Source: Aphrocallistes beatrix (taxonomy: Eukaryota; Porifera; Hexactinellida; Sceptrulophora; Aphrocallistidae). From it: 64,000 nt of DNA. The notes beneath the pieces are model-generated. The model did no database searches and had not been told where the DNA came from. It was given only the letters and a program-made list of their open reading frames with translations. The DNA lies in NCBI GenBank assembly GCA_963281255.1, contig OY725500.1:3095184-3159183 (forward strand), given 5' to 3'. Of this stretch, positions 291-58,086 are shown piece by piece. Position numbers and translations under genes: made by a program. Each line of letters opens with the position of its first letter. Position 1 is the first letter of the stretch.

Positions 291-709
291 TCCTAACTAT
301 TAAAACTTGATTAATGTATATATATTTATTTATTTATATACATAATTATATCTGTAACGAATTGATTGAAGAAACTGGCGAACACAAAGAGCTGATTTTT
401 GGCATGTGAGAGTATTTTGGCTATGGCTCCAGTAAGTTCTGAGCTCAGACGAAAATGTCGACTCATCATGGAATTATGACGTCATTGTCACATTTTTAAA
501 AGTTAAGCAACACAGTTATTCGGGAATAACTCAGCCATTATAGGAGATAGAAGGCTGAAATTTTAATAGAATCTGTATACTAACATACCTCACATATGAT
601 GTAACTATCATCAAAAAATGATGAATCATCACTTTGGTATGACGTCATCATTACTCATCAAAATTTAATAAATTGGTAAATTTGGTGATTTTTCGTGCGA
701 TATATAGTA
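291..709 (+). repeat. HN-1, Helitron-like non-autonomous element, 3' end missing
   Basis: Begins TCCTAACTATTAAAACTTG after a host A, has an AT-rich microsatellite at about 318-350, then the HN body with CTGTAACGAATTGATTGAAG and two TGACGTCA octamers. It stops at about 706, before the GC-rich 3' block, where it abuts the 3' end of HN-2 tail to tail. HN ends (TC at 5', CTTG before T at 3', no visible target duplication) resemble Helitron ends, though classical Helitrons end CTRR. Confidence 0.75.
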
Positions 710-1035
710 CAAGCGCGCTTCGCTTGCTTGCGCTGCGCGGCTGGTGGACACTTTGTGTCCGCCAGAGGCTCCCTTCGGTCGCCTGAGGTCACGTTGGTTA
801 ATTATAAAGGAGATAACATCTCTAAATATGTCCATCTTAGTGTTAAAATCGATTTCACTCGAAAAATCACCAAATTTTTTGCGTAATGATGACGTCATAA
901 CAAAGTGATGAGTCATCATTTTTGATGAAAGTAGTATCATACAGTGGCGTCAGGTTGACCAAAAAAGCGGGGGGGGACAGCCAGCCAGGCCGTTGTACTA
1001 GTACTTGTATACTAAGTGCACTCAATATGTCAATA

Positions 1036-1203
1036 CAGTAAACCCTTGCTAATCAGAAGTCCGAACGGAGGAGTTCCGATTCAAAAGATATCTGTTACGA
1101 TTATGGTATATATTCCAAGTTATTTTAATATGAATTTGAGAATGAGATGTTCGGATTTACGAGGGATCGGAGTGCCAAGGTTCTGAAAAGCGGGTTGCTA
1201 CTG
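1036..1203. mobile_element. pogo/Tc1-type MITE, 168 bp
   Basis: CAGTAAACCCTTGCTAATC at the left and GCGGGTTGCTACTG at the right form imperfect inverted repeats, with TA on both sides (1034-1035, 1204-1205). The ends resemble the CAGTACACCCTCGC element at 60830-61855. It sits in the 5' non-coding part of the hAT element. Confidence 0.7.
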
Positions 1204-1469
1204 TACATAAAAAAATGAATAATTGTATCAATTTTATTATTCAATACTTTCAGGTTGGTATTTCATAATTGATCAATTAAAGAATCATTATTCCACGTTG
1301 TTTTTTAATTGAACAATGGAAGTGTCTATACTCTATAGTGCTAATAATATACTACACTGAATGTGTTTCCAACCATAAATAACAAACAAATCAAGATTCT
1401 AGTAATTCAATAAATTTTAAAATTACCAATTTCTGATTTCCGATCTACATTTATTCTTGAAAATAATAA

Positions 1470-3841
1470 ATGTCTTCTTCTGAGAGTTCAGCTAAAAAGC
1501 CTAAGTTTGCACAGCCGATATTAAGCCATTTTCTCCAAGCACAATCAAGTCTATCAACACACTTCACCTGACTGCGATCCAGGTTCTCAGTCCCCTGAGA
1601 GCCCAAATGAATGTATTACCCTCTCACAACAGGAATCTGCAGAACAACACCAAATTACGCCACAACCACCAGTCAAGTCGGACAAGATTTTAACCCATAT
1701 CTAGTAGATAAAGAAACACACTGTCATGGCAATCAGAAGTTTAATAAAGCTTGGCTTGCCGAAATTCCCTGGCTACGTTACGATACAAATTTGGATTTGT
1801 GCTGGTGCTCTGTTTGTGTCTGGGGTTTGAATGCTGACATGTTACCAGCTAGTGAGAACAAACACAGGTTTGCAGAGAGCAGCTTTATCACTGGATGGAA
1901 TAATTGGCATGGTGGTAAGTCGAAGCTTCTGAGACATACAGGAGCTGATGCCGGTACGCTTAAGCATAATGTACATCATTATTTGGCAGGTGTCAAGGCT
2001 GCTCACGAGAATCAGCTAATGATTAGGGCCCAAGTAAGCAGCACGAAGAAACGGGAAATGCAAAGGAATAGGATTGGCCTTGATGCTGTTATTTCTAGCA
2101 TACAACTCTTGGCTAGACAAGGAATGCCGCTACGAGGCCATGGCGAAGAAAAAGATACAGCAAATATCTGGCAGGAAGTTAAACTAATTTCAAATTTCAA
2201 TGAGGATGTAAAATCATACTTTAATTCGTCTGGATACAAGTTTATGTCGGTACCAATACAGAATGTGTGTCTCAAGATGTTAGGTGATAGTGTACTGGAT
2301 ATAATTGTTGAGAAGATCAAGAGGTCCTTTGGTTTACATGTATCATGGATGAGACTCAAGACATCTCAACCCTTGAGCAAGTTTGCATCTGTATGAGATA
2401 TGTAGACGATTCAGATCTTAGTGTGCGGGGAGATTTTTTAGGATTTCATAACATAGTTGGTACTACAGCAGTAGAACTCTACAAGATACTTACCAAGACG
2501 ATAAAAACTCTTGGTCTTGACATGGAGAATTGCCGAGGTCAGGCATACGATGGGGCCTCAAATGTTTCTGGTTTGCAAACATTAGTTAGGAATCATCATC
2601 CAAAAGCCCTGTATTCCCACTGCGCTGGCCATAATCTTAATTTAGTGCTGAATGATGTTGCAAAGGAAGTTCGCCAGTGTTATCATATCGTGACTCTCGT
2701 AGGTAAGATCGGGAAATATGTGAAGGATTCAGCGAAAAGGAAAGCATATTTCGATCAGATACGAGTTGCAAACTCAGAAGACGGTAAGATAAGCAACTCA
2801 AATATCCGTCCCATATGTCCAACAAGATGGATTCTAAGATACCCTGCAGTCAATGCTATTTTAGAAAATTACGAGGATCTTCTTGACTTCCTGTGCTCCT
2901 CAATTGATAACGAAAACAAGGCTCAAGGATATGTTAGAGAACTTCAACGCTTTGAAGTCTATTTTGGAGTACGCATTCTACATCGTATCTTTGGTCAAGT
3001 TCACCCAGTTCACAATGCAATCCAATCAGAATCTATGTCACTGGGGGAGTGTTCAAGTATAGTAACTGCACTCACTGCTGCATTGAGAATAGACAGAGAA
3101 TCTGTGGACATTTTTAGCGTTTTCATGACTAGCTGTAAGTCTTCGGCATTGGCTATGGGTATTGATTTGCCTGTAGTTCCTCGAGGTCTCGCGAAAATGG
3201 TGAATAGAGGAAATAGGGTTGAATGGGAAATTGATGACATCGTTGTCAATAACTATTATCATGGTATTTGGACAAAGATGTATAGCTCTTTAGTAGGTTC
3301 GCTGACAAAGCGTTTTCAAGGAAAGGCAATTGACATTGCACGGGATTTTCAAGACATTTTGTCCAATATGAGCGAAGATTCTATTTATGAATTCTCTAGC
3401 ATGAACTCGCTCATGGAGCTCTACAATACTGACATTAATTGGAAACTGTTGAAGTTGGAGATGATACAATGGGATCGTGTTAGTAAGATATCCAACCCTA
3501 CCAAACACACGACTGATATGAAGTACCTTCACGAGTATCTTTCTGAGAAGTCTGATCATCGTCTAATGTGGCCTAATTTGGTGTTATTTCTTAAGCTCTA
3601 CCTTCTTCTTCCTTGTACATCTTTCTCTGCCGAACGTGGATTTAGCTGCTTAAGACGAATAAAAACATATCTGCGCAGCACAATGACAGAAGACAGACTA
3701 AATGCATGTGCATTATGCAATGTACATCAGGAAATATTGGACAAATTGGATATTGGCAAAATTACTGACGGTTGGATTAAGATGAGTGAGGTCAGGATGA
3801 ATAGATTTGTGCTAAGTAAAGACAGCTTAAGGGATTACTAG
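1470..3841 (+). pseudogene. hAT transposase (ZMYM1/DUF4371-like), frameshifted
   Basis: A cut-and-paste transposase of the hAT superfamily. The ATG at 1470 opens MSSSESSAKKPKF, typical of this group's N-terminus, but the frame stops at 1569. A proline- and glutamine-rich stretch continues in a second frame to about 1690. The TTF-type zinc-finger region (FNKAWLAEIPWLRYD, then CWCSVCVWG) follows at 1740-1830. A third shift near 2335-2345 leads into 2345-3841, with the catalytic-core motif CRGQAYDGASNVSG and HCAGHNLNLVLNDV. Near the C-terminus SFSAERGFSCLRRIK and the following RSTMTEDRLNA are the hAT dimerisation domain. Seen: three frame changes and stops. Inferred: a dead copy; a spliced gene is unlikely because coding similarity runs continuously across the joins. 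Length is near normal for the family. Confidence 0.9.
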
Positions 3842-3911
3842 AATAAAATTTATGGCATTTCTTTGCTTATAATTTACCTATAATATCGTACAATAGCAAT
3901 AAAGCAATAAA
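3842..3911 (+). terminator. Polyadenylation signals of the hAT gene
   Basis: Three AATAAA hexamers (3842-3847, 3898-3903, 3906-3911) follow the transposase stop codon within 70 bases. This fits a eukaryotic 3' end. The second and third are closely spaced, but AT richness means some may be chance. Confidence 0.45.
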
Positions 3912-4391
3912 ATGTCATAGAATCAATAATATTTAGGATTAATATTTCACACAGCATATTATTTACCGGTACATTGAGAAACTAGTATCAAAATACCTTC
4001 AAATGAGCATCATTTTTGAGAAAACCGGGGTGGCGCCCCCCCAGGTTTTTGGCTTTTATCAAAACCGGGGGGGCGAGCCCCCCCGCCCCCCCTGAACCTG
4101 ACGCCACTGGTATCATATGTGAGGTATGTTAGTATACAGATTCTATTAAAATTTCAGCCTTCTATCCCCTATAATGGCTGAGTAATGCCCGAATAACTGT
4201 GTTGCTTAACTTTTAAAAATATGACAATGACGTCATAATTCCATGATGAGTCGACATTTTGCTCTGAACTCAGAATTTACTGGAGCCAAAGCAAAAAGAC
4301 TCCCACATGCCTAAAATCAGCCTTCTGCGCCCGGCAGTTTCTTCAATCAATTCGTTACAGATATCTATCTATCTATCTATATATATATATA

Positions 4392-4414
4392 TCCTTACTA
4401 TTAAAACTCGATTA

Positions 4415-4448
<34 letters not shown>

Positions 4449-4941
4449 GTAACGAATTGATTGAAGAAACTGGCGGGCACAGAAAGCTAATTTTTGGCAT
4501 GTGGGAGTCTTTTGGCTATGGCTCCAGTAAGTTCTGAGCTCAGACCAAAATGTCGACTCATCATGGAATTATGACGTCATTGTCACATTTTAAAAAGTTA
4601 AGCAACACAGTTATTCGGGCATAACTCAGCTATTATAGGAGATAGAAGGCTGAAATTTTGATAGAATCTGTATACTAACACGTCTCACATATGATGCAAC
4701 TATCATCAAAAAATGATGACTCATCACTTTGCTATGACGTCATCATTACTCATCAAAATTTTTAAAATTGACAAATTTGGTGTTTTTTCGAGTGATATCG
4801 ATTTTTAAACTAAGATGGACATATTTAGAGATGATATCTCCCTTATAATTAACCAATGTCACCTCCAGGCGACCGAAGGGAGCCTCCGGCGGACACGAAG
4901 TGTCTGCCAGCCGCGCAGCGCAAGCAAGCGAAGCGCGCTTG
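4392..4941 (+). repeat. HN-3, full-length Helitron-like element, 550 bp
   Basis: One of the best copies. 5' end TCCTTACTATTAAAACTCG at 4392, preceded by A. A (TA)n tract lies at 4418-4447, then the conserved body. The GC-rich 3' block includes GCCTCCGGCGGACACGAAG and the palindrome AAGCGCGCTT, then final CTTG at 4938-4941 followed by T. No flanking duplication is seen, as expected for A^T rolling-circle insertion. Two TGACGTCA octamers (4572-4579, 4735-4742) and one TGACTCA (4717-4723) lie in the body. Confidence 0.85.
4572..4742. promoter_or_regulatory. bZIP-type sites in HN-3 (CRE and AP-1 consensus)
   Basis: TGACGTCA occurs at 4572-4579 and 4735-4742, and TGACTCA at 4717-4723. These are exact matches to the CREB/ATF and AP-1 consensus sequences. 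The same three sites recur at equivalent positions in most HN copies, so they are ancestral to the family. Function is inference only. Confidence 0.35.
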
Positions 4942-5619
4942 TAAATATACAATAATCGAGTTTTAATAGTATAGTGAGGTCAAAATAGGAAGCAAATAGT
5001 CTCAACCCAAAAAAAATTGCAAGACATTGTTTTATTGCATTTTTCCGTTGTATCATGTCTTAGGAGTAACATACTAAAAGTTTACCGAAACCGGAGTATC
5101 AGAAAGTGATTTGCCACGACCCCGTCGTTGACCCCAGACTATAAAAATCGCCGGTTTTGAAAACGGAGTATATATATATTGACTATATTTTGAGCAAAAG
5201 AATTTTGGGCCTTCCCTAGCAACAGCCTGGAATGTAAAAATTAGTCTAAACCATATCGAGTGACCCCTTGTTTTTCTCGGCTATGCTTTCTGAGTACGAA
5301 TTTCTTAATATAAATAGTCTAAACGTTAGTTTTAAAATATTATGGTTTGCGACTGGTAGTATTATTTATGTATTTTTAGCATAGATTGATTGATATGTTC
5401 ACATTCAATACCATCTTCGGTTTTGTAGGGAATTCTTAGAGATATTCATAGAATCCAACTATAGAATTTAAGTCAATAAGGGTCCCAAGCCTTATATGGA
5501 GTGGGCTATGAATGAAAATAATTTGTTATGAAATAATGACATGAAAAGATCCAGATCATTCGTTCAACGTTATGGCATAATTTTACTAACTAAGAATTAA
5601 GACAAAAACTACATCCAAA
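4942..5619. other. Unassigned; begins with an HN 5'-end scrap
   Basis: Bases 4951-4971 hold AATCGAGTTTTAATAGTA, the reverse complement of an HN 5' end, so a second partial HN abuts HN-3. The rest shows no ORF over 60 codons that I believe. CAAGCCTTATATGG and GGGCTATG at 5487-5511 resemble an E terminus. Confidence 0.35.
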
Positions 5620-7793: not shown

Positions 7794-8063
7794 TCCTTAC
7801 TATTAAAACTCGATCTGGGTTCTGAGCTCAGATCAAAATGTCGACTCATCATCGAATTATGACGTCATTGTCATCTTTTTTATAATTAGAAATTTCAGTT
7901 TTTCGACCATAACTCAGCCATTTTAGGCGATAGAAAGCTGAAATTTTAGTAGGCTGTACATATTGATATACCTCACATATGATACAACTATCATCAAAAA
8001 AATGATGACTAATCATTCTGTTATGACGTCATTATTACGCATCAAAATTTTAAAATTTCACAG
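7794..8063 (+). repeat. HN-4, internally deleted and 3'-truncated
   Basis: Begins TCCTTACTATTAAAACTCG after A. The microsatellite and first body segment are missing: the 5' end jumps straight to TTCTGAGCTCAGATCAAAA. Both TGACGTCA octamers remain. It ends near 8063 inside B3 sequence and lacks the GC-rich 3' block. Confidence 0.75.
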
Positions 8064-10565: not shown

Positions 10566-10859
10566 TATAAAAATTTTAATAGAATCTGTATACTAACATG
10601 TCTCACATATGATGCGACTATCATCAAAAAATGATGACTCATCACTTTGTTATGACGTCATCATTACTCATCAAAATTTTTAAATTCACAAATTTGGTGA
10701 TTTTTCGAGTGATATCGATTAGCACAGTAGAACAGACATATTTAGAGATGTTATCTCCCTTATAGTTAACCAATGTGACTCCAGGAGACCGAAGGGAGCC
10801 TCCGGCGGATACGAAGTGTCCGCCAGCCGCGCAGCGCAAGCAAGCGCGAAGCGCGCTTG
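10566..10859 (+). repeat. HN-5, 5'-truncated Helitron-like element
   Basis: The body begins at about AAATTTTAATAGAATCTGTA (10568) and runs through TGACTCA and TGACGTCA sites to the GC-rich 3' end and CTTG at 10859, followed by T. It lies within B1-1, so this copy arrived after B1. The 5' half is absent. Confidence 0.8.
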
Positions 10860-12622: not shown

Positions 12623-13158
12623 TCCTTACTATTAAAACTCGATTAATGTGTGTATATATATATCTGTAACTAATTGATTGAAGAAACTGCCAGGCGTAGA
12701 AAGCTGATTTTTGGCATGTGGGAGTCTTTTGGCTATGGCTCCAGTAAGTTCTGAGCTCAGACGAAAATGTCGACTCATCATGGAATTATGACGTCATTGT
12801 CACATTTTTAAAAGTTAAGCAACACAGTTATTCGGGCATAACTCAGCTATTATAGGAGATAGAAAGCTGAAATTTTAATAGAATCTGTATACTAACACGT
12901 CTCACATATGATGCAACTATCATCAAAAAATGATGACTCATCACTTTGCTATGACGTCATCATTACTCATCAAAATTTTTAAAATTGACAAATTTGGTGT
13001 TTTTCCGAGTGATATCGTTTTTAAAACTAAGATGGACATATTTAGAGATGATATCTCCCTTATAATTAACCAATGTCACCTCCAGGCGACCGAAGGGAGC
13101 CTCCGGCGGACACAAAGTGTCTGCCAGCCGCGGAGCGCAAGCAAGCGAAGCGCGCTTG
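12623..13158 (+). repeat. HN-6, full-length Helitron-like element
   Basis: TCCTTACTATTAAAACTCG at 12623 after A; short TA tract; complete body with two TGACGTCA and one TGACTCA; GC-rich 3' block and CTTG ending 13158, then T. Immediately downstream (13159-13199) TTACTATTAAAACTCGATTA is another HN 5' end lacking its first three bases, so a second copy starts where this one ends, and is cut off by the next MITE. Confidence 0.85.
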
Positions 13159-13199
13159 TTACTATTAAAACTCGATTAAAGTGTGTGTATATATATATA

Positions 13200-15439: not shown

Positions 15440-15504
15440 GTATAAATGCATTTGTATCAATACAGCAAAGACCCTGGCGGAAAAATATTTCCATCACAGT
15501 AACT

Positions 15505-16989: not shown

Positions 16990-17392
16990 AATCTATATAT
17001 CTTTCACGAATTGATTGTAGAAACTGTCAGGCTCAGAAAGCTGATTTTTGGCATGTGGGAGTATTTTGGCTATGGCTCATGCAAGTTCTGAGCTCAAACG
17101 AAAATGGCAACTCATCATGGAATTATGACGTCATTGTCTCCTTTTTTATAATTAGAAATTTTAGTTTTACGATAATAACTCAGCCATTTCAAGTGATAGA
17201 AGGCTAAAATATAATAGAATCTGTATATTAATATTCTTCACATGTGATACAACTATCATCAAAAGTGATAACTCTGTTATGACGTGATCATTGAGCATCA
17301 AAATTTTTAAAATTGACAAATTTGGTGATTTTTCGTGCGATATCGATTATAAAAGTAGGACAGGCGTATTTAGAGATGCTATCTCCCTTGCT
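16990..17392 (+). repeat. HN-7, truncated both ends
   Basis: Body from ATATCTTTCACGAATTGATTG to GATGCTATCTCCCTTG, more divergent than other copies. One TGACGTCA is intact, the other is TGACGTGA. The 5' end and GC-rich 3' block are missing. Confidence 0.7.
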
Positions 17393-18338: not shown

Positions 18339-19008
18339 CTGCACGAGTTGATTGAAGAAATTTTTGGCATATGGGAGTCTTTTGGCTATGGCTCCACTAA
18401 GTTCTGAGCTCAGACGAAAATGTCGGCTCATCATGAAATTCTGACGTAATTGTCACATTTTTAAAAGTTCAGCAATACAGTTATTCGAGCATAACTCAGC
18501 CATTATAGGAGATACAAGGCTGAAATTTTAAAAGAATCTGTATACTAACCAGGGTATTTTACAGCCCTCCAGAGATACGCTCCTAATCTAAAATCCCTAA
18601 ATTTTCATACGCCTAAATCTATAAATTGCATCATAAAATAGGGTAAATTGGGTATTATTCTGGATTTTCACGCTATAAACACTTTGAGGCTTAAAATCAT
18701 ACGCCTAAAGGAGCGTCTCGCGCTCCTAGATAATCCCCTGATACTAACATACCTAACATATGATGCAACTATCATCAAAAAATAATGACTCATCACTTTG
18801 TTATGACGTCATCATTACTCATTAAAATTTTTAAAATTGATAATCTTGGTGATTTTTCGTGCGATATCGATTACAACAGTAGGACAGACATATTTAGAGA
18901 TGTTATTTCATTATAATTAATCAATGGTGACCACATGCACCCAAAGGGCGCCTCCGGCGGACACAAAGTGTCCGCCAGCTGGCAGCCCAAGCAAGCGAAG
19001 CGCGCTTG
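18339..19008 (+). repeat. HN-8, split by a hAT-type MITE
   Basis: Body from CTGCACGAGTTGATTGAAG, interrupted by the 191-bp MITE at 18550-18740, then continuous to the GC-rich end and CTTG at 19008. The 5' terminus is missing; the copy begins at the TA microsatellite (18307-18338). Confidence 0.8.
18550..18740. mobile_element. hAT-type MITE, 191 bp, exact 8-bp duplication
   Basis: CAGGGTATTTTACAGCCC at the left, AGATAATCCCCTG at the right, flanked by ATACTAAC (18542-18549 and 18741-18748). HN sequence is continuous across the duplication. It shares ends and GAGCGTCTCGCGCTCC with the 99-bp form at 16727. Confidence 0.92.
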
Positions 19009-21519: not shown

Positions 21520-21868
21520 AGTTGATATCACTCGAAAAATCATAAATTTGTCAGTTTTTGATTAGTGATGATTACGTCATAAAAGTGTTGAGTCATCATT
21601 TTTTAATGAAAGTTTATCTTATGTGAGATATATTAATATACACATTCTATTAAAGTTTCAGACACCTATCACCTAAAATGGCTGAGTTATACTCTAAAAA
21701 CTGAAAATTCTATTTTAACAAAAGATGACAATCACGTCATAATTCCATGATGAGTCGACATTATCTTCTGAGGTCAGAATTTAGTGGAGCCAAAGCCAAA
21801 AGACATCCACATGCCAAAAATCAGCTTTATGTGCTCGGCAGTTTATTTAATCAATTCATTACATATAT
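21520..21868 (-). repeat. HN-9, divergent, missing the 3' block
   Basis: Minus-strand body from GATATCACTCGAAAAATC to CAATTCATTACATATATA. One octamer is TTACGTCA, another CACGTCAT, so both bZIP-like sites are damaged. An old copy. Confidence 0.7.
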
Positions 21869-21875
21869 ATATATA

Positions 21876-22230
21876 CACTCGAACCTCTCTTATCCGGACC
21901 TCCGATATCCGGGCACCTCTCTCAACCGGGCAGCCCTTTCGACATTTAGTCAATATGCATTGTCCTATTTTCAAGTCAATTATTAACCACAATTTCAGCA
22001 ATCATTATCATGTAATATTATTTAATGAACTATGATAATGAATCTGGAAGATAATTGCGACATCTAATATATTCAGGGGTAAATACTGCTTAAAATGTAT
22101 TAATCAATCGCAATGGAATAGTTTCTTTTCCTTTAAAGAATATCTATTTTACAAAAATCTCTCTTATCCGGACCTCCGATATCCGGGAAAATTATGTTAT
22201 CCGGCACCCTCCGGTCCGGCACTTCAAGTG
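21876..22230. mobile_element. pogo-like MITE type 2, 355 bp
   Basis: CACTCGAACCTCTCTTATCC at the left, CCGGTCCGGCACTTCAAGTG at the right, TA flanks. The first 150 bp nearly equal the copy at 16378. Confidence 0.75.
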
Positions 22231-23583: not shown

Positions 23584-23589
23584 TATATA

Positions 23590-25293: not shown

Positions 25294-25370
25294 CAAGCGC
25301 GCTTCGCTTGCTTGCGCTGCGCGGCTTGCAGACACTGCGTGTCTGCAGATTTTCCCAGTGGGCGCTTGCG
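25294..25370 (-). repeat. HN-10, GC-rich 3' end only
   Basis: CAAGCGCGCTTCGCTTGC and the following 50 bp match HN 3' ends, but the hairpin is changed to CAGACACTGCGTGTCTG. The body is absent. Confidence 0.65.
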
Positions 25371-25849
25371 GATATTAGAGAAACAATACGTCGCTTTCTT
25401 GTTTTATACTAAGTACGCTGGATTGTCATTTGTCTACGGTTACATTAATGAAATCAGAACTGTAGCAGAAATTTTGTTTCGTGATAAATATAATTTACTT
25501 CGTATTAAGTCAACTAATCCTGAATGTAAGCTCAATTTGAATACACCAAGTTCACATTGCTAAAGATTATTATACTTAACTAATCAATTCCAGTCCATGT
25601 CGTTAAAAGTTATTTTATGATCGAATTGATTGATCGTAGCATATAACACACTTTAATTGTTGTTAACAATCAAATTATAGACTCAAAATAGCAGTATTCA
25701 ATCATTTATATGAAATAGAATCGTGTGAATGGCATTATAAAAGGCTGATAATTGATTGGTTCACATAAACCAATGAATTTCAATCACAAATAGTTATTTT
25801 GATTGTATGCATAAGTCAATACTATTTTATTCCAATGTATTTGCATTAT
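25371..25849. other. Unassigned
   Basis: AT-rich. The end of a 108-codon ORF starting in HN-10 covers 25371-25563 but shows no known motif. I do not support it as a gene. Confidence 0.3.
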
Positions 25850-26088
25850 AAAATAATCGAATTTGATTGGTCAGCACATTTTGTCACCTATCTCGGCGAG
25901 GTGTGAACATTTCGCTTAGATCTTCGAACTTAATCCTAGATTCATCATTTGACACCTACATGCCAATTTTCGTATCTCTACGACTTGCCAATTCTTCAAT
26001 CAATTCGGACAAACAAACAAAAAAAAAAAAAAATCCTAGAGTTTTAATATATAAGATATACATTAATCGAGTTTTAATATTAAGGATT
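25850..26088 (-). repeat. HN-11, degenerate, with 5' end
   Basis: Minus strand. ACATGCCAATTTTCGTATC and TTCTTCAATCAATTCGGAC match the HN body loosely. An A-rich tract replaces the microsatellite. ATTAATCGAGTTTTAATATT then AAGGA (ending 26086) is the HN 5' terminus, followed by T. Confidence 0.55.
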
Positions 26089-27172: not shown

Positions 27173-27486
27173 CAAGCGCGCTTCGCTTGCTTGCGCTGCG
27201 GCGGCTGGCAGACACTTCGTGTCCGCCGGAGGCTTTTTCGGTCGCCTGGAGGTGACATTGGTTAATTATAAGGGAGATATCATCTCTAAATATGTCCATC
27301 TTAGTTTAAAAATCGATATCACTCGAAAAAACACCAAATTTGTCAATTTTAAAAATTTTGATGAGTAATGATGACGTCATAGCAAAGTGATGAGTCATCA
27401 TTTTTTGATGATAGTTGCATCATATGTGAGACGTGTTAGTATACAGATTCTATCAAAATTTCAGCCTTCTATCTCCTATAATAGCT
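27173..27486 (-). repeat. HN-12, 5'-truncated
   Basis: 3' end at 27173 with the GC-rich block, body through TGACGTCA and TGAGTCA to TCTCCTATAATAGC at 27486, then unrelated sequence. The 5' half is lost. Confidence 0.8.
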
Positions 27487-30305: not shown

Positions 30306-30798
30306 CAAGCGCGCTTCGCTTGCTTGCGCTGCGCGGCTGGCGGACACTTTGTGTCCGCCGGAGGCTCCCTTCGGTCGCCTGGGATCCCATTGGTTAAATA
30401 TAAGGGAGATAACATCTATAAATACGTCTGTCCTACTATTATAATCGATATCGCACGAAAAATCACCAAATTTATCAATTTTAAAAATTTTGATGAGTAA
30501 TGATGACGTCATAACAAAGTGATGGGTCATCATTTTTTGATGATAGCTGCATCATATGTGAGATATGTTAGTATACAGATTCTATTAAAATTTCAGCCTT
30601 CTATCTCCTATAATGGCTGAGTTATGCTCGAATAACTGTATTGCTTAACTTAAAAAATGTGACAATGACGTCATAATTCCATGATGAGTCGACATTTTGC
30701 TCTGAGCTCAGAACTTACTGGAGCCATAGCCAAAAGACTCCCACATGCCAAAAATCAGCTTTCTGTGACCGGCAGTTTCTTCAATCAATTTGTTACAG

Positions 30799-30833
<35 letters not shown>

Positions 30834-30857
30834 ATAATCGAGTTTTAATAGTAAGGA
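30306..30857 (-). repeat. HN-13, full length, 552 bp
   Basis: Complete minus-strand copy: 3' end CAAGCGCGCTTCGC at 30306, hairpin GGCGGACACTTTGTGTCCGCC region, two TGACGTCA octamers, TA/CA microsatellite at 30797-30830, and 5' end AGTTTTAATAGTAAGGA at 30857, then T. Bases 30859-30970 are an older HN fragment in the same orientation, so HN-13 landed in or beside an earlier copy. Confidence 0.88.
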
Positions 30858-33164: not shown

Positions 33165-33228
33165 TAGTTGAATTATATTCTTTTTAATTGTTACTAAGGG
33201 GCCATAGAACAAAAATAAAATATAAATT

Positions 33229-33448
33229 TAAGCCTTCTGTCACCTAAAATGGCTGAGTTATAGTCGAAAAACTGAAATTTCGAACTCTAAAAAAGGAGAC
33301 AATGACGTCATAATTCGATGATGAGTCGACATTTTCGTCTGAGCTCAAAACATACTGGAGCCATCGTCAAAAGACTCCCACATGCCAAAAATCAGCTTTC
33401 TGTGACTGGAAATTTCTTCATTCAATTCGTTACAGATAGATAGATATA
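33229..33448 (-). repeat. HN-14, 5' half of the body only
   Basis: AGCCTTCTGTCACCTAAAAT through TGACGTCA and TTCAATTCGTTACAGATAG, then a GATA tract that joins HN-15 directly. Its 3' half is missing. Confidence 0.75.
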
Positions 33449-33939
33449 CAAGCGCTTCGCTTGCTTGCGCTGCGTGGCTGGCGGACACTTTGTGTCCGCC
33501 GGAGGCTCCCTTCGGTCGCCTGGAGGTGAGATCGGTTAATTATAAGGGAGACATCATCTCTCAATATGTCCATCTTAGATATAAAATCGATACCACTCGA
33601 AAAAACACCAAATGTGTCAATTTTTAAAATTTTGATGAGTAATGATGACGTCATAGCAAAGTGATGAGTCATCATTTTTTGATGATAGTTGCATCATAAG
33701 TGAGACGTGTTAGTATACAGATTCTATTAAAATTTCAGCCTTCTATCTCCTATAATGGCTGAGTTATGCCCGAATAACTGTGTTGCTTAACTTTTAAAAA
33801 TGTGACAATGACGTCATAATTCCATGATGAGTCGACATTTTGCTCTGAACTCAGAACTTACTGGAGCCATAGCCAAAAGACTCCCACATGCCAAAAATCA
33901 GCCTTCTGCGCCCTGCAGTTTCTTCAATCAATTCGTTAC

Positions 33940-33992
<53 letters not shown>

Positions 33993-34014
33993 CATCGAGT
34001 TTTAATAGTAAGGA
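33449..34014 (-). repeat. HN-15, full length with a long (TA)n tract
   Basis: 3' end CAAGCGCTTCGC at 33449 (a CG deletion shortens the terminal palindrome), GC-rich hairpin, two octamers, a pure (TA)n run at 33941-33988, and 5' end AGTTTTAATAGTAAGGA at 34014 followed by T. Confidence 0.87.
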
Positions 34015-34034: not shown

Positions 34035-34185
34035 CAAGCGCGCTTCGCTTGCTTGCGCTGCGCGGCTGGCTGACACTTTGTGTCTGCCGGAGGCTCCCTT
34101 CGTTTGTCTGGGGTCACATTGGTTAATTATAATGGAGATAACATCTCTAAATATGTCTGTCCTACTGTTATAATCTATATCGCAA
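34035..34185 (-). repeat. HN-16, 3' end and part of the body
   Basis: CAAGCGCGCTTCGC at 34035 through GTGTCTGCCGGAGG to TAATCTATATCGC, then an abrupt change to repeat M-2. Confidence 0.78.
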
Positions 34186-34665: not shown

Positions 34666-34775
34666 CAAGCGGGCTTCGCTTGCTTGCGCTGCGCGGCTGG
34701 CGGACTCCCACATGCCAAAAATCAGCTTTCTGTGGTCGGTAGTTTCTTCAATTAATTCGTTGCAGATAGATAGAT

Positions 34776-34829
<54 letters not shown>

Positions 34830-34861
34830 CCCATACATTAATCGAGTTTTAATAGTAAGGA
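34666..34861 (-). repeat. HN-17, internally deleted miniature (196 bp)
   Basis: Both ends are intact: CAAGCGGGCTTCGC at 34666 and AATAGTAAGGA at 34861, each beside T. GGCTGGCGGAC joins straight to TCCCACATGCC, removing about 330 bp of body. A (GATA)n tract of about 60 bp occupies the microsatellite position. Confidence 0.85.
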
Positions 34862-44732: not shown

Positions 44733-45844
44733 TTGTAATACAAATTCTATGGAGAACTTTGAATATATTAGAAAATGGCGAATCTTATAATTAAATATGT
44801 TCCAAATGTGGCGATTATGCAAAATAATGAATACAATTGTTGTTAATGATGTGTACAGATAAATTGGAGAACTTTTGATAATTATTTTGAAAGTTCTGTC
44901 CTTGGACCTCCCAGATTCGATCAAAAACCCCCATTTAGGACACAAAAAGAGATATCTCTCTATCTCTGTAAATATAAGCCCAAATTATTAGTTCTCACTT
45001 CCTAATATACTTTTTGGAAACTCTTTATTCATTCTAAACTGATAGATTATACTTCGTAGTGCTAGGAATATGAATTATTATTCACAATTATCTCAAAATA
45101 TTCGGGGTTAGGGGCCTCATGGAAATTTTTAGATTTTCAGGGTACTCTTGCTATTTTATGTAAATATTTGGTTCGAATATACCTAAATCAGCAGTATAAA
45201 TGCAAATAAATGTCTGTGAATGCTTTTGTTCATTTTAAATAACTCATTTTACATTCTTCTTAACATCTAAACTTCAAATCTCTATATCTCGGGACATTAA
45301 AATTTCAAAATTGACCGTCTTTACATAATTTTAAGTCAAAATTGTTTTGAGATAGAGGTTTGAAAATTTCAAGAATTGTTCCATATCATAAGGCGATGAA
45401 CGTAGGACCACTTTATTTTCGATATCTTATAACTTGGTGATCTTATTCATGATTTCCACATTTTTCACCCTTTTTTCACCCTTTTTTTTCGAACACCGAT
45501 AAAATTTACAATTTTTCTCATTTTAACTTTCTTTTGGTCTTATGAAGTGGCAAATATGATAGACTATCTATGATTCGATTTTGGAAGCATTTGTTCCCTT
45601 GGTATGTCCTAAACAATTCCTTGAGTTGCCGGATTTCTACCATCAAGATGTGCTAGCGATAAACGAAAAAAACAGACTTTGAGAGGCTGTATCTCAAAAA
45701 TTAGAAATGACAATCAAAAACGGTTTGAAAAATGTAAGTATTTCTTGACGGAGATACCTGCCCACGCTTAACATCTCTTATAGCTCTACTTTCATCGTAT
45801 GCTGTAAGCCAAATCATATGATTTTTCGAGGGCGGTATCCTTAA

Positions 45845-48821
45845 GCATGTTCTAGGGAGATCAAACGCGTATGTATACACCATTGAGTTTCAAAAGAGCG
45901 TTCTCCCTCATGCGCATATCCTGATCATCCTATCTGATAAGGATAAACCTAGAGATCCTACTATGTATGATGAGATAGTCTGTGCTGAGATTCATGACAA
46001 GGATCTCAACCCTAGACTTTATCAAAATTGTGAAGTACTGCATGATCCATAGCCCATGCGGCGTAGTAAGGAAACATGCTGCCTGTATGCGCGATGTAAA
46101 ATGCAATAATAAGTACCTCCAAAGTATTTTATCAGTTTACCACAACCGGTAATGACAGCTATCCAATGTACAAACGTCGAAATAACGGTCGTACAGTTAT
46201 TGTGAATGGGATTCAGCTGGACAATAGGTGGGTTGTTCCATACAACCCTTATTTACTTTTGAAATAAAATACTCATGTAAATATTGAGATTTCTCCACCA
46301 TTAGTGCTGTTAAATACCTTTACAAGTATGTGTATAAAGGCCATGATAGGCTATTGTTGAATTTCGCATTGGTGATAATGCTGGAAGTAGCACTAACAAA
46401 GCAGCCATGGACATCGACGAGATAGTAAATTATCTGGAAGCGGGTTATGTTTCAGCTACTGAATCATGCTACCGACTCTTTGTGTATGAACTTCATGCTA
46501 ACCTACCACACGTCATGCGGTTAGCTCTCAATCTGGAGCATCACCAGCCTGTCGTGTTTACCGGAGATTCTGACTTGCAGGAGGTTCTTCGTAGACAGAC
46601 GGATACCTCCCTACAGGATGGTTTTTGGCAACCCAAAAATACCTTAGTGCTCGCAAGCTCACATACACCAACTTTCTTGATGAGTTTGTGTGGACTAAAT
46701 CCAAACGTTAGTGGACCGAAAGGTTGAAAGGACATGGTAACATGATAGGTCGTGTCTATTCTGCCCATCCCGGCGAAAGAGAGCGTTACTTCCTCAGAAT
46801 GCTCCTTAACCATGTAACAGACTGTACTGTTGCCATAATATCCGCACTCTCCCTGATGGCACCATCTGCACTACCTTTAAGGAGGTATGCCGTAGACGAG
46901 GCCTGTTGGAAGATGACCAGGAATCCGATGACTGTCTCACTGAGGCCGCTACCTGTGCTATGCAAGCACAACTGCGGCAGTTATTTGTCACCATCTTTCT
47001 GTTTAATGAGCCATGTGACCCACTAGCACTGTTGAATGCGCATAATGCATCTCTAGCGGAGGAGTTTCTACTTCGTGCGAGAATTCTTTTCCCAATATCC
47101 AAATGAATGCTTCTATTTTGAATAGTGCGTTACTATATATTGAAAATTGCATAGAATAGCATGGAAAATATTTATCCGGTTATCCTGGAATGCCTATCCC
47201 ACTCAAGATAGGAGTCCATATGATCTACCGCGCATCATTCAAGATGAACTTGCTTATGGTGCACCTGAACTAGCCATAAGTGCAGATACTAATGTGCCTT
47301 TACTGAACCCGGACCAGTTGAGATATAGACAATCCTATTGCTGAAAACAACGCATTTTTTGTTGACGGTCCCAGTGGGACTGGTAAAACATTTTTGTACA
47401 ATACATTGTTAGCTAAGTTTCGCTCCTGTGGTGAAATCGCACTAGCAATTACTTTATCTGGAATAGCAGCTCTCCTCCAAGAAGGCGGGAGAACTATCCA
47501 TTCTATGTTGAAAGTTCCTATCACATTAAATGGACTATCTGTTTGTAATATCACTAAACAGAGTGCTTTAGCCAAACAGGGTGCTAAGCTTTTAGTTTGG
47601 GATGAAGCTCCTATGATGCATAAACATGCTGCTGAATGTATAGATCGGACATTTCGAGATCTCTGCTCCAATGATCTAATACCATTTGGTGTCAAAGTTA
47701 TTGCATTCGGAGGTAACTTCCGACAATCCTGCCCATTATTAGGCGTGGATCGAGTGCCGAGGTCGTATCAGCCTGCCATAGCAAATATTCACACGGTATC
47801 AACTGAGTCTGCACTCAGGTAGGAGAAGGTACTGAGCCTCATGGTGAAAATAACATGATTCAATTAGATCATATACTTGTATATGTAGCACGTAGTGAGT
47901 CTATTGATGACTTAGCCACTGCTATATATGGTAACATTAAAGAACATTTTAATGATCGTGATTACATCACGCCGTGTATTATGATGTCTCCTAAAATTGA
48001 GACAGCTGAAAAGATAAATAAATACGTGATTGATCAACTTCCTGGAGAAGCAAATGTATTACTGAGTGCTGGCTCACAAGATACCAGTCAGACAGCTATG
48101 TATCCTACTGAATACTATCTTAATTCTATTACGCCTACTTGCCTCCACACCGCCTCTACCTTAAGGAGTATGCGCCAATTATACTCTTGCGCAGTCTCGA
48201 TCCCACGAATGGGATGTGTAATGGCACCCGATTACTAATTAGAGCATTTTTAAACAATGTTATAGATGCTGAAATTGCCACAGGTATATCCATTGTGGCA
48301 AACGAGTGTTCATTCCTCGCATTATAATGACTCCTTCTGAAACAGATTTCCCATTTGATCTCAGACAGAAGCAGTTTCCTATTCGCCCTGCCTATTGTAT
48401 AACAATTAACACAGGGCAGGGGCAGAGTCTAGAATCTGTTGGTATCTTTCTGCCATCTCCTGATGCTATGTTCAGTCATGGGCAATTGTACGTTGCCCTG
48501 AGTCGAGTTAAGAACCCTAAGGGCTTGAAAGTCATGGTTTGTGGCGCAAACTATTCCACTTCGGATGGTGTTTGGATTAGGAATGTGGTCTACCGTGAGG
48601 TATTCCAAAACCATAATATCAATCTATCCCTTAATGATACCATGGATCTTTCTCAAATGGATATATTATTGAGTGAAATTTCATTTTCCACAGCAGACTT
48701 AAGGAATCACTCTGAGGATGACAGGGATCCAGCTCCCAGTCAAACCTCAATTCCTATTAGAGCAGCAGTATGTCTAACAGGTACTGTCAATCGATTCTCA
48801 CTGAACATGAGGACTCAGTAA
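45845..48821 (+). pseudogene. Helitron Rep/helicase, 5'-truncated, many frameshifts
   Basis: The rolling-circle transposase of a Helitron in decay. In order: TIEFQKSVLPHAHILIILSD carries the HUH motif (His-Ala-His at 45909-45917) of the Rep nuclease; AVKYLYKYVYKGHD (about 46306-46347) carries the paired catalytic tyrosines. EIVNYLEAGYVSATESCYRL and HVMRLALNLEHHQPVVF (46420-46560) are the usual linker. The Pif1-type helicase starts near 47320: Walker A GPSGTGKT (47367-47390), Walker B LLVWDEAP (47590-47612), GGNFRQ (47709-47727), then NGMCNGTRLLIR and finally TINTGQGQSLESVG and HGQLYVALSRVKNPKG (48400-48530). At least ten frame changes. The N-terminus before HUH was removed by P-1; the stop at 48819-48821 lies in the P-2 junction. 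Rep tyrosine and helicase motifs are readable but the gene is dead. Confidence 0.93.
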
Positions 48822-50758: not shown

Positions 50759-51265
50759 CCATAAGTATCGACAATCGACAATAAAATAGTACATCACGTA
50801 ATATCTCTTTCAACACGATTAGATTACACCAAATACAATTACTATATTACTCGTTCAATTGATTACTAAGAGGGTAATTAGTAGTACAACTCATTGCATT
50901 CATTGTGAGAACGTTCAACTGCTTATAGGTATTTTTTTAATTAATAGATCTATTCATATATATTTTGAAGGCGATATCAATGTGAAATCTATTATCATAC
51001 ACTATTTAGTTAATCATTTGCATGATTGAAATATTCATAAGCATAAAAGGTGACACCAGTGGAATGGCCTTTGAGAGAATCAGAGAAGCCAGAGCCACTG
51101 CTAGAATTTATACTAGAAATCCAATAAATGAAGACATGAGAAGCGATTAATATTATACGATAATAGAAGTTTGATTATGTGAATACAAACGAGCTTTAAT
51201 TGATAAATGCTTTTCTAGCCTTTTTCTGTGCAAATGCATCAAATTAATGAGGTAAAATCTAATCT
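50759..51265. other. Unassigned, between P-2 and a hAT stub
   Basis: No supported feature. It could hold the non-coding tail of the Helitron or of the hAT gene, but no motif decides. Confidence 0.3.
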
Positions 51266-51411: not shown

Positions 51412-52267
51412 CAAGTGCGCTTCGCTTGCTTGTGCTGCGCGGCTGGCAGACACTTTGTATCCACCGGAGGCGCCCTTGGGGCGCCTGGGGTAACATTGAT
51501 TAATTATAAGGGAGATAACATTTCTAAATACGTCTATCTTACTGTTATAATGGATATCGCACGAAAAATCACCAAATTTGTCAATTGTTAAAATTTTGAT
51601 AAGTATTGGTGATGTCGTAACAGAGAATGAGTCATCATTTTTTGACAATAGTTGCAAATTTCTAATTCTAAAAAAAGGTGGTAATGAAGTCATAATTCCA
51701 TGTTGAGTCGACATTTTGGTCTGAGCTCAGAACTTAGTGGAGCCATTGCCAAAAGACTCTCACATGCTCAAAATCAGCTTTCTGTGCCTGGCAGTTTCTT
51801 CAATCAATTCGTTACAGATATATATATATATTTATATATAGTAGAACTTGTATATAGCGGCTACGCAAGGGACTGGACAAAATTGGCCGTTATACACAGG
51901 TGACCGTTATATACAAGTGATTGTCATCTCCAAAAGGTATCAACGTAGTGCAATAAATAAGTTTTTAGAAATCTATTTCTTGAAGTAATTACTACATGAA
52001 ACTTGTTTATCGTTCGTAACAGGCCATGCAATAAACACATGAAAAGGCGAAAAGGGTGTTGGCCGTTATACACAGTTTTGGGGTCAGTAAGGGACTACAA
52101 ACGGCTGGCTGCTGGCCGCGTTGAGCAGGTGACCGCTATACACAGGTTCAATATTATGGAATTTCGGACAGGACTGTTCATTGGTGACCGCTATAGACAG
52201 GTGACCGTTATATAGAGTGGCAGTTATAGCAGGTTCGACTGTATATAAAGAGTTTTAATAGTAAGGA
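51412..52267 (-). repeat. HN-18, split by a pogo-like MITE
   Basis: 3' end CAAGTGCGCTTCGC at 51412, body to GTTACAGATATATATATA, MITE at 51840-52241 within the microsatellite, then 5' end AGTTTTAATAGTAAGGA at 52267. Divergent: only one of the octamers survives in altered form. Confidence 0.83.
51840..52241. mobile_element. pogo-like MITE type 1, 402 bp
   Basis: AGTAGAACTTGTATATAGCG at left and AGCAGGTTCGACTG at right, TA flanks. It is an inverted copy of the 13200 element. Confidence 0.75.
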
Positions 52268-52571: not shown

Positions 52572-54227
52572 TATTGAAAAGTAAGTTAAGTACTACTAGT
52601 ATAAGTTGTTGAATTAGGATGTTTTGATGTTATTTATTATCAGAATACAGTATTAACTAACGGAAATCAAGCCTTTCCGAAAAAAATTGCTTTGTAGCCT
52701 GTTTTTAGCACTTAAAAAATCAATTAGTTACAAAGGTCGTAGAGTTAAAAACTCGACGGTTTTAGAAAGATCTCGTCACGTAGAACAAAATGATAGAGAC
52801 AGATTTTTGATATTCTAATTTAGAAAAACGTTAAAATATTTTTCCTTAGGAAATCCGCTTCTAAAAATTGTATAAACCATAGCCTACTCTAATAATGCCT
52901 CACAGTAAAATAACCAAGGATGCGGTAATAGCCGAATGGATTAATACACGATTAGCCTAAAATCGTCAACCATGTAGGATAGGCATTAAGAATGTATTAC
53001 CAGCATATATAGACATGGCATCAAATAACATACATCCGTTGGAAAAATTTCGATTAGTCATCATATCATTGCGCAACAGATCATTTTAAGCACGATTTTG
53101 GCAATTTTCTAAGCTGTTTTAAGCCTACTTCTAAATGTTATTAAGGTAGAATTTTTGTGTAGAACCAAGATTAGTACGAGTTGATTTGAAAAATTTTAGA
53201 ATTTTTCAATGGAATGTTGTTACATTCCTGTGTTGCTATGGTAAAGCATTTTGGTCAGTTTGGGCCAATTCGTGCAAACTGTAGTAGCTAGATCTTCAAA
53301 TTTGATCGTGTTTGATAAGCAATTGGCTACTTCCTTTTAGGTAATAATACAATTTAAACTTTTAAATTCACAGACTACTGAGCTATGCGACAATTTAGAA
53401 TTTGGGCACATTCTTAAAATCAACCCATAACTCAAAACTCGTTAGATTTAGAAGTTCAAATTGTATTATCACCTAATAGGAAGTAGGCCATTGCCTATCA
53501 AACACGATCGAATTTAAAGATCTAGCAACTACAGTTTACACGAAATGGCCCAAACTGACCAAAATGCTTTACCATAGCAACGCAGGAATGTAACAACATT
53601 TCATTGAAAAATTCTATATTTTTCAAATCAACTCGTACTAATCTTGGTTCTATGCAAAATTCTACCTTAATAACATTTAGAAGTTGGCTTAAAACAGCTC
53701 AGAAATTTGCCAAAATCGTGCTTAAAATGACCTGTTGCGCAATGATATGATAAATAATCGAAATTTTGACAACGGATATATGTTATTTGGTACCATGTTT
53801 TTATATGCTGGTAATACATTCTTAATGCCTATTCTCCATGGTTAACGATTTTAGGCAAATCGTGTATTAATCCATTCGGCTACTACTTCATCCCTAGTTC
53901 ATGATTTTCAGTCTACTGTGAGACATTATTAGAGTAGGCTATGTATAAACGAAATTTGAAAGAAAAAATTAGTTGGGTTAAAATTGAAAATTCTATTCCT
54001 ATTATTTTCTTTATTTAACCATTTCGTGCAAGAATAATTGAGTAAAAGAGGCATAAGGCATTGAAGTTTCCTTGAATGTCCTCTATAAATTAGGCCATTT
54101 GGGAAAAACAATTCTCTTACTTTTTGGGCTCCCGAAAAGTGTATTTTTTTAGATAACTCATCGAGAATAGTTTCTACAAAATTTTCAGGAGAAAATAATG
54201 AAAACTTTTAAAGTTAGTTCTGGACGG
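52572..54227 (+). mobile_element. B2-3, right half, split by E-2
   Basis: GTTAAGTACTACTAGTATAAG onward follows the right half of B2 (GATTTTTGATATTCTAATTT; CTTTTTGGGCTCCCGAAAA) to GTTCTGGACGGAAAC, then changes into B1-6 within the terminal repeat. E-2 interrupts at 52878. Confidence 0.75.
52878..53943. mobile_element. E-2, giant hairpin element, 1066 bp
   Basis: CATAGCCTACTCTAATAATG at left, complement at right. Arms of about 480-500 bp pair nearly throughout, e.g. TGCGCAACAGATCATTTTAA with its mate at 53720. Flanked by an exact 7-bp duplication TATAAAC (52871-52877, 53944-53950), and the intact B2 copies show TATAAAC once. Confidence 0.92.
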
Positions 54228-54786: not shown

Positions 54787-54865
54787 ATAGAATGGACAAA
54801 TCGAAAGTATCCTATTTTCACTCTCATTTGAGATACAGATTTGGGACGATAACTTTTGGAATGCC

Positions 54866-57237: not shown

Positions 57238-57463
57238 AGTGAATACCCTTATTCGTGGTGATGATGCTGATGGGAATGATGATTGAATAACTTTGTGTGC
57301 ATTGTCATTATTACTTCTATTAATATTTATTACTTCCCCATATGTTATAACTTATTCATTTAATGGTGTCAAGTTATAATGGTGACATAAATACCATATA
57401 CAATTACGTCATAACCGGCACAATAGTATTTCATTCAATTTTTAGACAATGATCCTATTGGAA
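57238..57463. other. Unassigned
   Basis: No feature seen. Confidence 0.3.
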
Positions 57464-57755
57464 CCTATTGGTCAATGATACTTTTTAAGCCCCTATCTGC
57501 AACAGAAATATCTATTTCTAGATTATTACCACTTTGCGTCATTATTGGATGACGTCATGGTGAGCATCTCTGAAGCATTAGGAAAAACTGATTCCACTAA
57601 TCGATATCTTAGGTCCGAAAACCTATTGGTCAATAATACTCTTTAAATCCTTATCTGCAGCAGAAATACCTATTTCTAGATTATGACAACTTTGTGCCAC
57701 TATTGGATGACGTCTAGTGAGCATGCCTTAAGCCATTTAAAAAGACTGATTCCAA
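57464..57755 (+). repeat. Tandem duplication, about 156-bp unit
   Basis: ACCTATTGGTCAATGATACT at 57465 and ACCTATTGGTCAATAATACT at 57621 begin two copies about 85% alike, each with TTCTAGATTAT and ATTGGATGACGTC. Confidence 0.8.
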
Positions 57756-57789
57756 TATTTCTTTGATGATTTAAATTATATTTGAAATT

Positions 57790-58086
57790 TGTTAATATAC
57801 ACCTATTAAATTTCAGCCTTCTATCGCCTAAAATGGCTGAGTTATAGTCTAAAAACTGAAATTTCTAATTGTAAAAAAGGTGACAATGACGTCATAATTC
57901 CATGATGAGTCGACATTTTCGTCTGAGCTCAGAACTTACTCGCCCATAGCCAAAAGACTCCCATATGCAAAAAATCAGCTTTCTGTGCCTGGCAGTTTCT
58001 TCAATCAATTATTTACAGAGGTATGTACTCTAACCGGACAATAGTATTTGAAATCCTTAGTATTTTCCATGTTTTAATAGTAAGGA
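57790..58086 (-). repeat. HN-19, 5' half with terminus
   Basis: AATATACACCTATTAAATTTC through TGACGTCA to ATTTACAGAGG, a non-repetitive replacement of the microsatellite, and TTTTAATAGTAAGGA at 58086 followed by T. The 3' half is absent. Confidence 0.8.

What the first reader, a model, noticed from the sequence alone, without database searches (positions are those of the whole stretch)
291..58086. A Helitron-like family (HN) with about 20 copies and an unusual CTTG 3' end
Every readable 5' end is TCCTTACTATTAAAACTCG after A, and every readable 3' end is CTTG before T, with no duplication. That is the A^T insertion mark of Helitrons, but classical ends are CTRR and the hairpin lies a little way upstream; here AAGCGCGCTT almost reaches the end. 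The family may be a distinct Helitron lineage or an unrelated rolling-circle-like element.
Basis: partly seen in the sequence, partly recalled or inferred. Interest (0 to 1): 0.75.

Follow-up and report, generated by a model that had tools for sequence, protein, structure and literature searches.

The report
Helitron family ending in CTTG
These repeats look like short, deleted copies of an ordinary rolling-circle transposon (a Helitron) whose full-length, protein-coding parent is present in the same genome; the one oddity is a slightly different last four letters, which has been reported before in a mushroom.

Summary
The window carries about 20 HN copies or fragments. Genome-wide, 3,908 of 4,095 exact 5' ends follow A, and 4,439 of 4,519 exact 3' ends precede T.

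HelE (9,505 bp, G000:C2:3994039-4003543) has the same TCCTTACTATTAAAACTCG...GCGCGCTTG ends and an uninterrupted 1,959-codon RepHel frame that aligns to Helraiser over about 1,470 residues, with the HUH, two-tyrosine and helicase motifs.

Empty sites of HelE and of one window copy show clean insertion with no duplication. 107 exact head-to-tail CTTG^TCC junctions fit rolling-circle or circle intermediates.

HN is most simply an internal-deletion derivative of HelE; a degenerate copy of the 3' end in the HelE 5' UTR is the likely deletion site. A second RepHel family (TCTTATATATT...GCGCACTTG) has a remnant in the window (45841-48819).

So this is a canonical-type Helitron with CTTG in place of CTRR. 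CTTG has a precedent, HELPO2 of Pleurotus. It is a new family of a known kind, not a new class. No tree was built.

The parts
291..703 (+). HN copy, 5' end and body (3' end missing)
   Evidence: a^TCCTAACTATTAAAACTTG; 87% to HN 1-393
710..941 (-). HN 3' part, ends CTTG^t at 710
4112..4975 (-). HN copy split by the nested HN at 4392-4941; its own altered LTS is at 4942-4975
   Evidence: other HN copies give the uninterrupted site, but it lies in a microsatellite, so the exact junction cannot be fixed
4392..4941 (+). Complete HN copy (550 bp), nested, a^TCC...CTTG^t
   Evidence: 94% to HN reference
7794..8062 (+). HN 5' part, a^TCC
10571..10859 (+). HN 3' part, CTTG^t
12623..13158 (+). Complete HN copy (536 bp), used as reference
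13159..13198 (+). Start of a head-to-tail second HN copy; junction CTTG^TTACTATT lacks TCC
   Evidence: 16 such exact junctions genome-wide
16991..17389 (+). HN internal part
   Evidence: 81%
18360..19008 (+). HN copy without 5' end, CTTG^t
21524..21878 (-). HN internal part
   Evidence: 80%
25294..26086 (-). HN 5' end followed at 26056 by a family-2 LTS (TCTTATATATT); ends CTTG^t at 25294
   Evidence: 25726-26056 is 93% to HelD 1-345
27173..27486 (-). HN 3' part, CTTG^t
30306..30857 (-). Complete HN copy (552 bp) with a different deletion joint
33224..33450 (-). HN internal part
33449..34014 (-). HN copy, a^TCC...; 3' end carries a 2-nt deletion (GCGCTTG^t)
34035..34181 (-). HN 3' part, CTTG^t
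34666..34861 (-). 196-bp internally deleted HN copy, a^TCC...CTTG^t
51412..52267 (-). HN copy inserted in a hAT-transposase-like sequence (hAT label by eye); a^TCC...CACTTG^t; empty site found; carries a second element near its 5' end
57759..58086 (-). HN 5' part, a^TCC
45841..48819 (+). Decayed family-2 RepHel (end of the Rep domain and helicase), ~91% to HelD 2518-5610
   Evidence: (PF14214 match at C14:3141005-3141109, 31.5 bits)
50791..51047 (+). Further piece of the decayed family-2 element (HelD 6465-6710)
   Evidence: 83%

Best explanation
HN is a non-autonomous Helitron family mobilised in trans by HelE-type RepHel transposases. Shown by sequence: HelE and HN share both ends; HelE encodes a HUH nuclease and PIF1-type helicase like Helraiser; insertions are clean between A and T; exact end-to-start tandem junctions occur. 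Inferred, by analogy with Helraiser: the transposase nicks at A^TC, peels off one strand 5' to 3', stops at the hairpin-rich 3' end and cuts after CTTG, forms a circle or concatemer with a CTTG-TC joint, and inserts it at an AT dinucleotide. Also inferred: HN arose from HelE by deletion between a decayed 3'-end copy in the HelE 5' UTR (HelE ~385-511) and the true 3' end (9367-9505). The deletion kept both ends and removed the gene. Two different joints among the four copies examined suggest that this happened more than once.
For: HelE has both termini and an uninterrupted 1,959-codon frame. The best PDB match is Helraiser 7lcc, 1,036 bits over residues 175-1646 of the 1,759 searched. Pfam Helitron_like_N 202 bits and PIF1 250 bits, OTU. 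Motifs LPHAHI, VKYLYKY and GGTGKT in HelE, HelD and HelF. HelE empty sites: 29 of the 40 places scored run across the junction; 4 fetched and aligned, with nothing gained or lost at the junction. The window copy 51412-52267 likewise has junction-exact empty sites in 2 of 2 fetched. Family-2 elements A and F have paralogous empty sites without a gap at the junction. 107 exact GCTTG^TCC junctions. HN 1-522 matches HelE 1-511 at 88% and HN 397-536 matches HelE 9367-9505 at 95%. The joint is near HN 390 in 3 of 4 copies and near 460 in the fourth. 19 of 44 matches (HelE itself among them; 40 of 2,109 candidates scored) span nearly the whole 351-nt query of decayed 3' end plus 5' UTR.
Against: The 3' tetranucleotide is not CTRR. 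The hairpins show no covariation beyond shuffles (268 of 500 shuffles reach the covariation score; no pair with both sides changed), so the termination role is inferred. Transposition was not observed. Only one HelE-type copy with an uninterrupted frame was read in full. The deletion origin rests on four HN copies, one of them partial, and the reverse history (HelE assembled from an HN by read-through) is not excluded. Of eight joined sites given, only two had spanning matches among the 40 places scored. Only one of the five paralogous sites of family-2 element A still reads A^T at the junction; the others read A^A or G^G. One family-2 empty-site match has a 3-nt gap at the junction (F vs G), and the nested copy A_C11 1416 has a 1-nt gap. 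The family-2 B copy has A, not T, after CTTG. Of 20 paired copies, 3 do not start with TC and 3 do not end in CTTG as paired (one of these mispaired).
Confidence: 0.93

Rival explanations
1. A distinct rolling-circle lineage (Helentron/Helitron2-like) with its own end rules.
For: Unusual CTTG end; a terminal palindrome that reaches the end; OTU domain at the C-terminus, a domain reported for Helentrons (passages of PMC4067079; PMC9741609).
Against: Insertion is A^T with a TC start, not T^T. Pfam at E up to 0.01 lists no AP endonuclease in the HelE or HelD frames. RepHel aligns to the canonical Helraiser over about 1,470 residues.
Confidence: 0.05
2. MITE-like cut-and-paste elements moved by a DDE transposase.
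For: Short, numerous and AT-rich at the 5' side. Transposase-like ORFs of DDE type lie in the window (labels assigned by eye).
Against: The two ends are not inverted copies of each other (by eye), and the empty sites show no target duplication. The long element with the same ends encodes RepHel, not DDE.
Confidence: 0.01
3. On the origin only: HN is ancestral, and HelE was assembled when an HN lost its 3' terminator and read through into a RepHel gene, ending at a downstream 3' end.
For: The HelE 5' 511 nt are collinear with nearly the whole HN, including a 3'-end copy that lacks about its last 14 nt. Read-through past a lost 3' end is documented for Helraiser (passages of PMC4778049).
Against: The HN 3' 140 nt match the true HelE 3' end (95%) better than the decayed one, with clear switches, as deletion of HelE predicts. 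The decayed copy is also present in more diverged HelE-like loci (75-94% identity).
Confidence: 0.15

Closest known systems
Helraiser / Helibat (Helitron1, bat Myotis lucifugus)
   Same: RepHel with HUH, two tyrosines spaced YxxxY and a PIF1-type helicase; TC 5' end; A^T insertion without duplication; 3' subterminal hairpin; precise end-to-start junctions.
   Different: 3' end CTTG instead of CTAG; several hairpins and a terminal palindrome instead of one 19-bp palindrome 11 nt from the end; C-terminal OTU domain and N-terminal STPR-type repeats scored by Pfam here (Helraiser itself was not scanned).
HELPO2 (Helitron of Pleurotus ostreatus, PMC4289320)
   Same: 3' end CTTG, AT insertion, subterminal hairpin, RepHel in one ORF (section 5 read).
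   Different: RepHel of about 1,400 aa; the paper reports intact non-autonomous copies only in HELPO1. No sequence comparison with HELPO2 was made here.
Helentrons / DINE-1 / Helitron2
   Same: Rolling-circle RepHel transposons; OTU domains occur; short, numerous non-autonomous copies with microsatellites (passages).
   Different: AP endonuclease, subterminal or asymmetric inverted repeats and other target preferences there; here A^T targets and no endonuclease found by Pfam.

Membership tests
Canonical Helitron (Helitron1) | Autonomous member with Rep (HUH, two Tyr) fused to SF1/PIF1 helicase | tested here: met
Canonical Helitron (Helitron1) | Insertion between A and T, no target duplication | tested here: met
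   counts; empty sites
Canonical Helitron (Helitron1) | 5' end TC | tested here: met
   10 of 12 window hits; 17 of 20 paired copies; family 2 also TC, 5 of 5
Canonical Helitron (Helitron1) | 3' end CTRR | tested here: not met
   CTTG: 43 of 54 BLAST-chosen ends; 4,519 exact CTTG 17-mers vs 28 CTRR matches of a similar 16-mer. HELPO2 (CTTG) is still called a Helitron in PMC4289320, so I file this as a Helitron with a deviant end.
Canonical Helitron (Helitron1) | 16-20 nt hairpin about 10-12 nt before the 3' end | tested here: inconclusive
   Of 5 folded 90-nt ends, 3 have z below -2.5 and 2 about -2.0; a 9-bp hairpin ~33 nt from the end plus a terminal one; no covariation beyond shuffles
Canonical Helitron (Helitron1) | RepHel falls in the Helitron1 clade of a tree | not tested
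   No reference set of Helitron1/2/Helentron proteins was at hand; only the Helraiser PDB match
Helentron / Helitron2 | AP endonuclease fused to RepHel | tested here: not met
   Pfam scans of HelE and HelD frames at E up to 0.01
Helentron / Helitron2 | Insertion into TT or T-rich target | tested here: not met
Helentron / Helitron2 | Asymmetric or subterminal inverted repeats | not tested
   No dedicated search made
DDE transposon / MITE | Target site duplication | tested here: not met

The most novel reading that the evidence does not exclude
The decayed 3' end kept in the HelE 5' UTR is a built-in generator of short passengers. Recombination, or premature termination followed by template switching, between it and the true 3' end repeatedly makes HN elements, and the CTTG end with a hairpin that reaches the cut site marks a Helitron sub-lineage whose terminator works somewhat differently from the CTRR type.
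Probability: 0.15. Interest if true: 0.5.

Novelty: new member of a known kind. Interest (0 to 1): 0.3.

Why it matters
It gives a complete Helitron system (parent with an uninterrupted frame, second parent family, thousands of passengers, empty sites, tandem junctions) with a non-CTRR end. Search tools run with a CTRR requirement (PMC4289320 describes its HelSearch run so; passage) would be expected to miss it. It also shows a plausible route from an autonomous to a non-autonomous Helitron by deletion between two copies of the 3' end.

Tried and rejected
Pairing of the terminal palindrome as the single conserved structure: family-2 ends (GCGCACTTG) break one pair. The isolated 21-mer of that type folds no better than its shuffles (z 0.27), and the GCGCGCTTG 21-mer only slightly better (z -1.42; 20 of 200 shuffles as good). 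Covariation support for three hairpins: pairs are kept (75.5%, 93.5% and 93.2% of cells) but do not exceed shuffles; the terminal alternative pairs in 95.8% of cells, also not beyond shuffles; RNAalifold predicts only 5 pairs. The alignment used 40 of the 54 matches. The 14 dropped were two truncated ends, two near-duplicates of family 2, four internal copies ending CAAA or AAAA, and six with altered or poorly alignable ends, among them CTGT, GTTT and CTTA.

Some spanning 'empty-site' hits were set aside as trivial: the flank is itself the next tandem copy (window 12623, region D, region I), or the end was mispaired (window 33447). A_C11 1416 is a nested insertion whose 3' end reads CTGT, not CTTG; its junction alignment shows a 1-nt gap, so it was not used as clean evidence.

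Search for Helitron with STPR in print: no paper. The second Helitron paper search was rejected for its wording and repeated with other words. Rfam on the window: no match at gathering scores. I did not identify the organism. One search translated the end of the HelE frame in the wrong frame; one search used the right one.
Full report
WHAT WAS CHECKED. The window is C14:3095184-3159183 of a 100.5-Mb, 28-contig genome. The 5' signature occurs 12 times in the window at up to 3 mismatches against 0.01 expected. Ten of the 12 start with TC, and those ten follow A. The 11 listed 3' ends read CTTG and are followed by T; CTTG was part of the pattern that chose them, so only the T is independent. Chosen by BLAST instead, 43 of 54 3' ends in all held DNA end in CTTG and 46 of 54 are followed by T. 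Of 20 copies with paired ends, 17 start with TC, 19 follow A, 17 end in CTTG and 19 are followed by T (one is mispaired, and one is the second copy of a tandem). About 20 copies or fragments are present in the window (my grouping of the 24 BLAST segments). HN, HelE and HelD matches together cover 10,229 of the 64,000 window bases.

GENOME-WIDE COUNTS. The exact 5' 19-mer occurs 4,095 times and its reversed control 0 times. 187 are not preceded by A, so 3,908 of 4,095 (95.4%) are. 107 copies sit directly behind GCTTG, i.e. in exact head-to-tail junctions; leaving these out, 3,908 of 3,988 (98.0%) follow A. The exact 3' 17-mer CAAGCGAAGCGCGCTTG is followed by T 4,439 times and by another base 80 times: 98.2% T. 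CTRR forms of nearly the same end (a 16-mer without the leading C) occur 28 times, 24 of them CTAG. CTTG is therefore close to fixed. As in any Helitron that starts with T and sits before T, the cut point is ambiguous by one base (A^T or T^next).

THE AUTONOMOUS PARTNER. PF14214 finds 106 matches in the genome, many of them pieces. Around some of the best ones I read nine regions. Region E holds a 9,505-bp element, HelE (L039:4039 to L040:3543), which begins A^TCCTTACTATTAAAACTCG and ends GCGCGCTTG^T. Its single frame of 1,959 codons aligns to Helraiser (7lcc) with 1,036 bits over residues 175-1646 of the 1,759 searched. Pfam gives Helitron_like_N, PIF1, the PIF1 2B domain and N-terminal STPR repeats, plus a weak C-terminal OTU domain (24.6 bits, cut-off 23.3; 30.4 bits in HelD). 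The HUH (LPHAHI), VKYLYKY (the two tyrosines, matched to Y727/Y731 of Helraiser through the alignment), Walker A and GQLYVALSR motifs are present. No other stop-to-stop frame above 89 aa lies between this frame and the 3' end.

A SECOND FAMILY. Regions A, B, C, D and F hold related RepHel elements of 9.1-10.2 kb. They start A^TCT(T/G)ATATATTAAAACTC, 5 of 5 after A. Four of the five end GCGCACTTG^T (in D the T begins a further tandem copy); B ends CGCGCTTG followed by A. D (1,947 codons) and F (1,970 codons) have uninterrupted frames. The exact 5' 18-mer TCTTATATATTAAAACTC occurs 231 times. A decayed copy lies in the window at 45841-48819 (about 91% to HelD), with smaller pieces at 50791-51047 and 52383-52594.

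EMPTY SITES. Joining the HelE flanks gives a sequence found intact elsewhere: 29 of the 40 places scored (of 1,438 candidates) run across the junction, the best at 99%. Four were fetched and aligned: CCCTACA^TGATTAAT in three and CCCTACA^TGGTTAAT in one, with no base gained or lost at the junction. The window copy 51412-52267 sits in a repeated, hAT-like coding sequence (label by eye). 11 of the 40 places span it, and the two fetched read CACTACGTA^TTTTTG and CACTACGTA^ATTTTG, with the main length difference (5 nt) about 40 bases away. The other six joined sites had no spanning match among the 40 scored places. For family 2, element A has five gapless paralogous sites in held DNA, two of them in the window (45052-45310, 90%; 49360-49617, 85%), but only one of the five reads A^T at the junction; the others read A^A or G^G. 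Element F has one clean site in region E (A^T) and one weaker match with a 3-nt gap; element C has a weak gapless one (73%, G^T).

TANDEMS. 107 exact GCTTG^TCC junctions, and 16 more that lack TCC, including the window copy at 13158. A direct G^T joint is not expected from an ordinary A^T insertion next to an old copy. It is what a circle or concatemer predicts, as described for Helraiser (passages of PMC4778049 and PMC5876387).

HOW HN AROSE. HN 1-522 is collinear with HelE 1-511 (88%), yet HN 397-536 is 95% identical to the true HelE 3' end. The HelE 5' UTR holds a degenerate 3'-end copy that lacks about its final 14 nt. Sliding identity shows a switch from the 5' UTR path to the true 3' end near HN 390 in three copies (12623, 4392 and the partial 27173) and near 460 in the fourth (30306). 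The simplest reading is deletion between the two copies of the 3' end, at least twice. 19 of the 44 matches, HelE included, span nearly all of the 351-nt query, so the arrangement is shared by many HelE-like loci. In the three that I could read (HelE, L018, L048) the decayed copy breaks off in much the same place and runs into the same ATGTTTACTAATTA sequence.

3' END STRUCTURE. Single-strand folding gives a 9-bp hairpin about 33 nt from the end and a terminal GC-rich hairpin (z between -2.0 and -3.8 in five ends). Pairs are conserved but do not covary beyond shuffles, so structure as such is likely but not proven.

COMPARISON. By protein, target and 5' end this is a canonical Helitron. The CTRR criterion is not met. 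A literature search for 'Helitron' with 'CTTG' gave 2 papers. One of them reports a CTTG-ended family, HELPO2 (PMC4289320; passages, section 5 read); the other is the Helraiser paper, whose single CTTG passage I did not see. A search for Helitron with STPR gave none. The OTU domain is known from Helitrons and Helentrons (passages of PMC9741609, and PMC4067079). I did not build a tree, so the place within Helitron1 rests on the Helraiser match, the target and 5' end, and the absence of an endonuclease domain.

VERDICT. Real, well supported, ordinary in kind: a large new Helitron family with a deviant but not unprecedented 3' end, whose passengers most likely come from internal deletion of an identified parent.

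Noticed in passing
45841-52594: Decayed family-2 RepHel element with helicase ORF pieces (47322-47822, 48273-48821), so a coding Helitron remnant lies inside the window itself.
   Followed up: partly
13700-16300: Arrays of a 17-bp unit (AATTTGGTCAACCGAAT and complement) in both orientations around a ~2-kb interior; looks like a transposon with repetitive inverted ends.
   Followed up: no
1611-3841, 9108-10031, 19486-20019, 22313-24570: Long transposase-like ORFs (hAT-like, mariner-like and Tc1-like by eye; no family search made).
   Followed up: no
13200, 16847, 52223: Starts of a CAGTCGAACCTGCTATAAC-like element after TATA, twice within or beside HN 5' ends.
   Followed up: no
L039-L040 (HelE) and L030, L034, L037: RepHel elements carry a second, decayed 3'-end copy just upstream of the true 3' end (HelE 9298-9362; family-2 copies ending CAAA).
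   Followed up: partly
HelE residues ~75-220: N-terminal 23-residue STPR-type repeats (PF21107, 43.7 bits), a repeat domain also matched by PDB 5d23, fibroin-modulator-binding protein-1.
   Followed up: partly
36-44 kb, 55 kb, 62-64 kb: Another dispersed repeat family with ATTTAGTGCTGAG/TATATCAAATTG motifs (D2, D4, D8, D17, D20), not matched by HN in BLAST.
   Followed up: no
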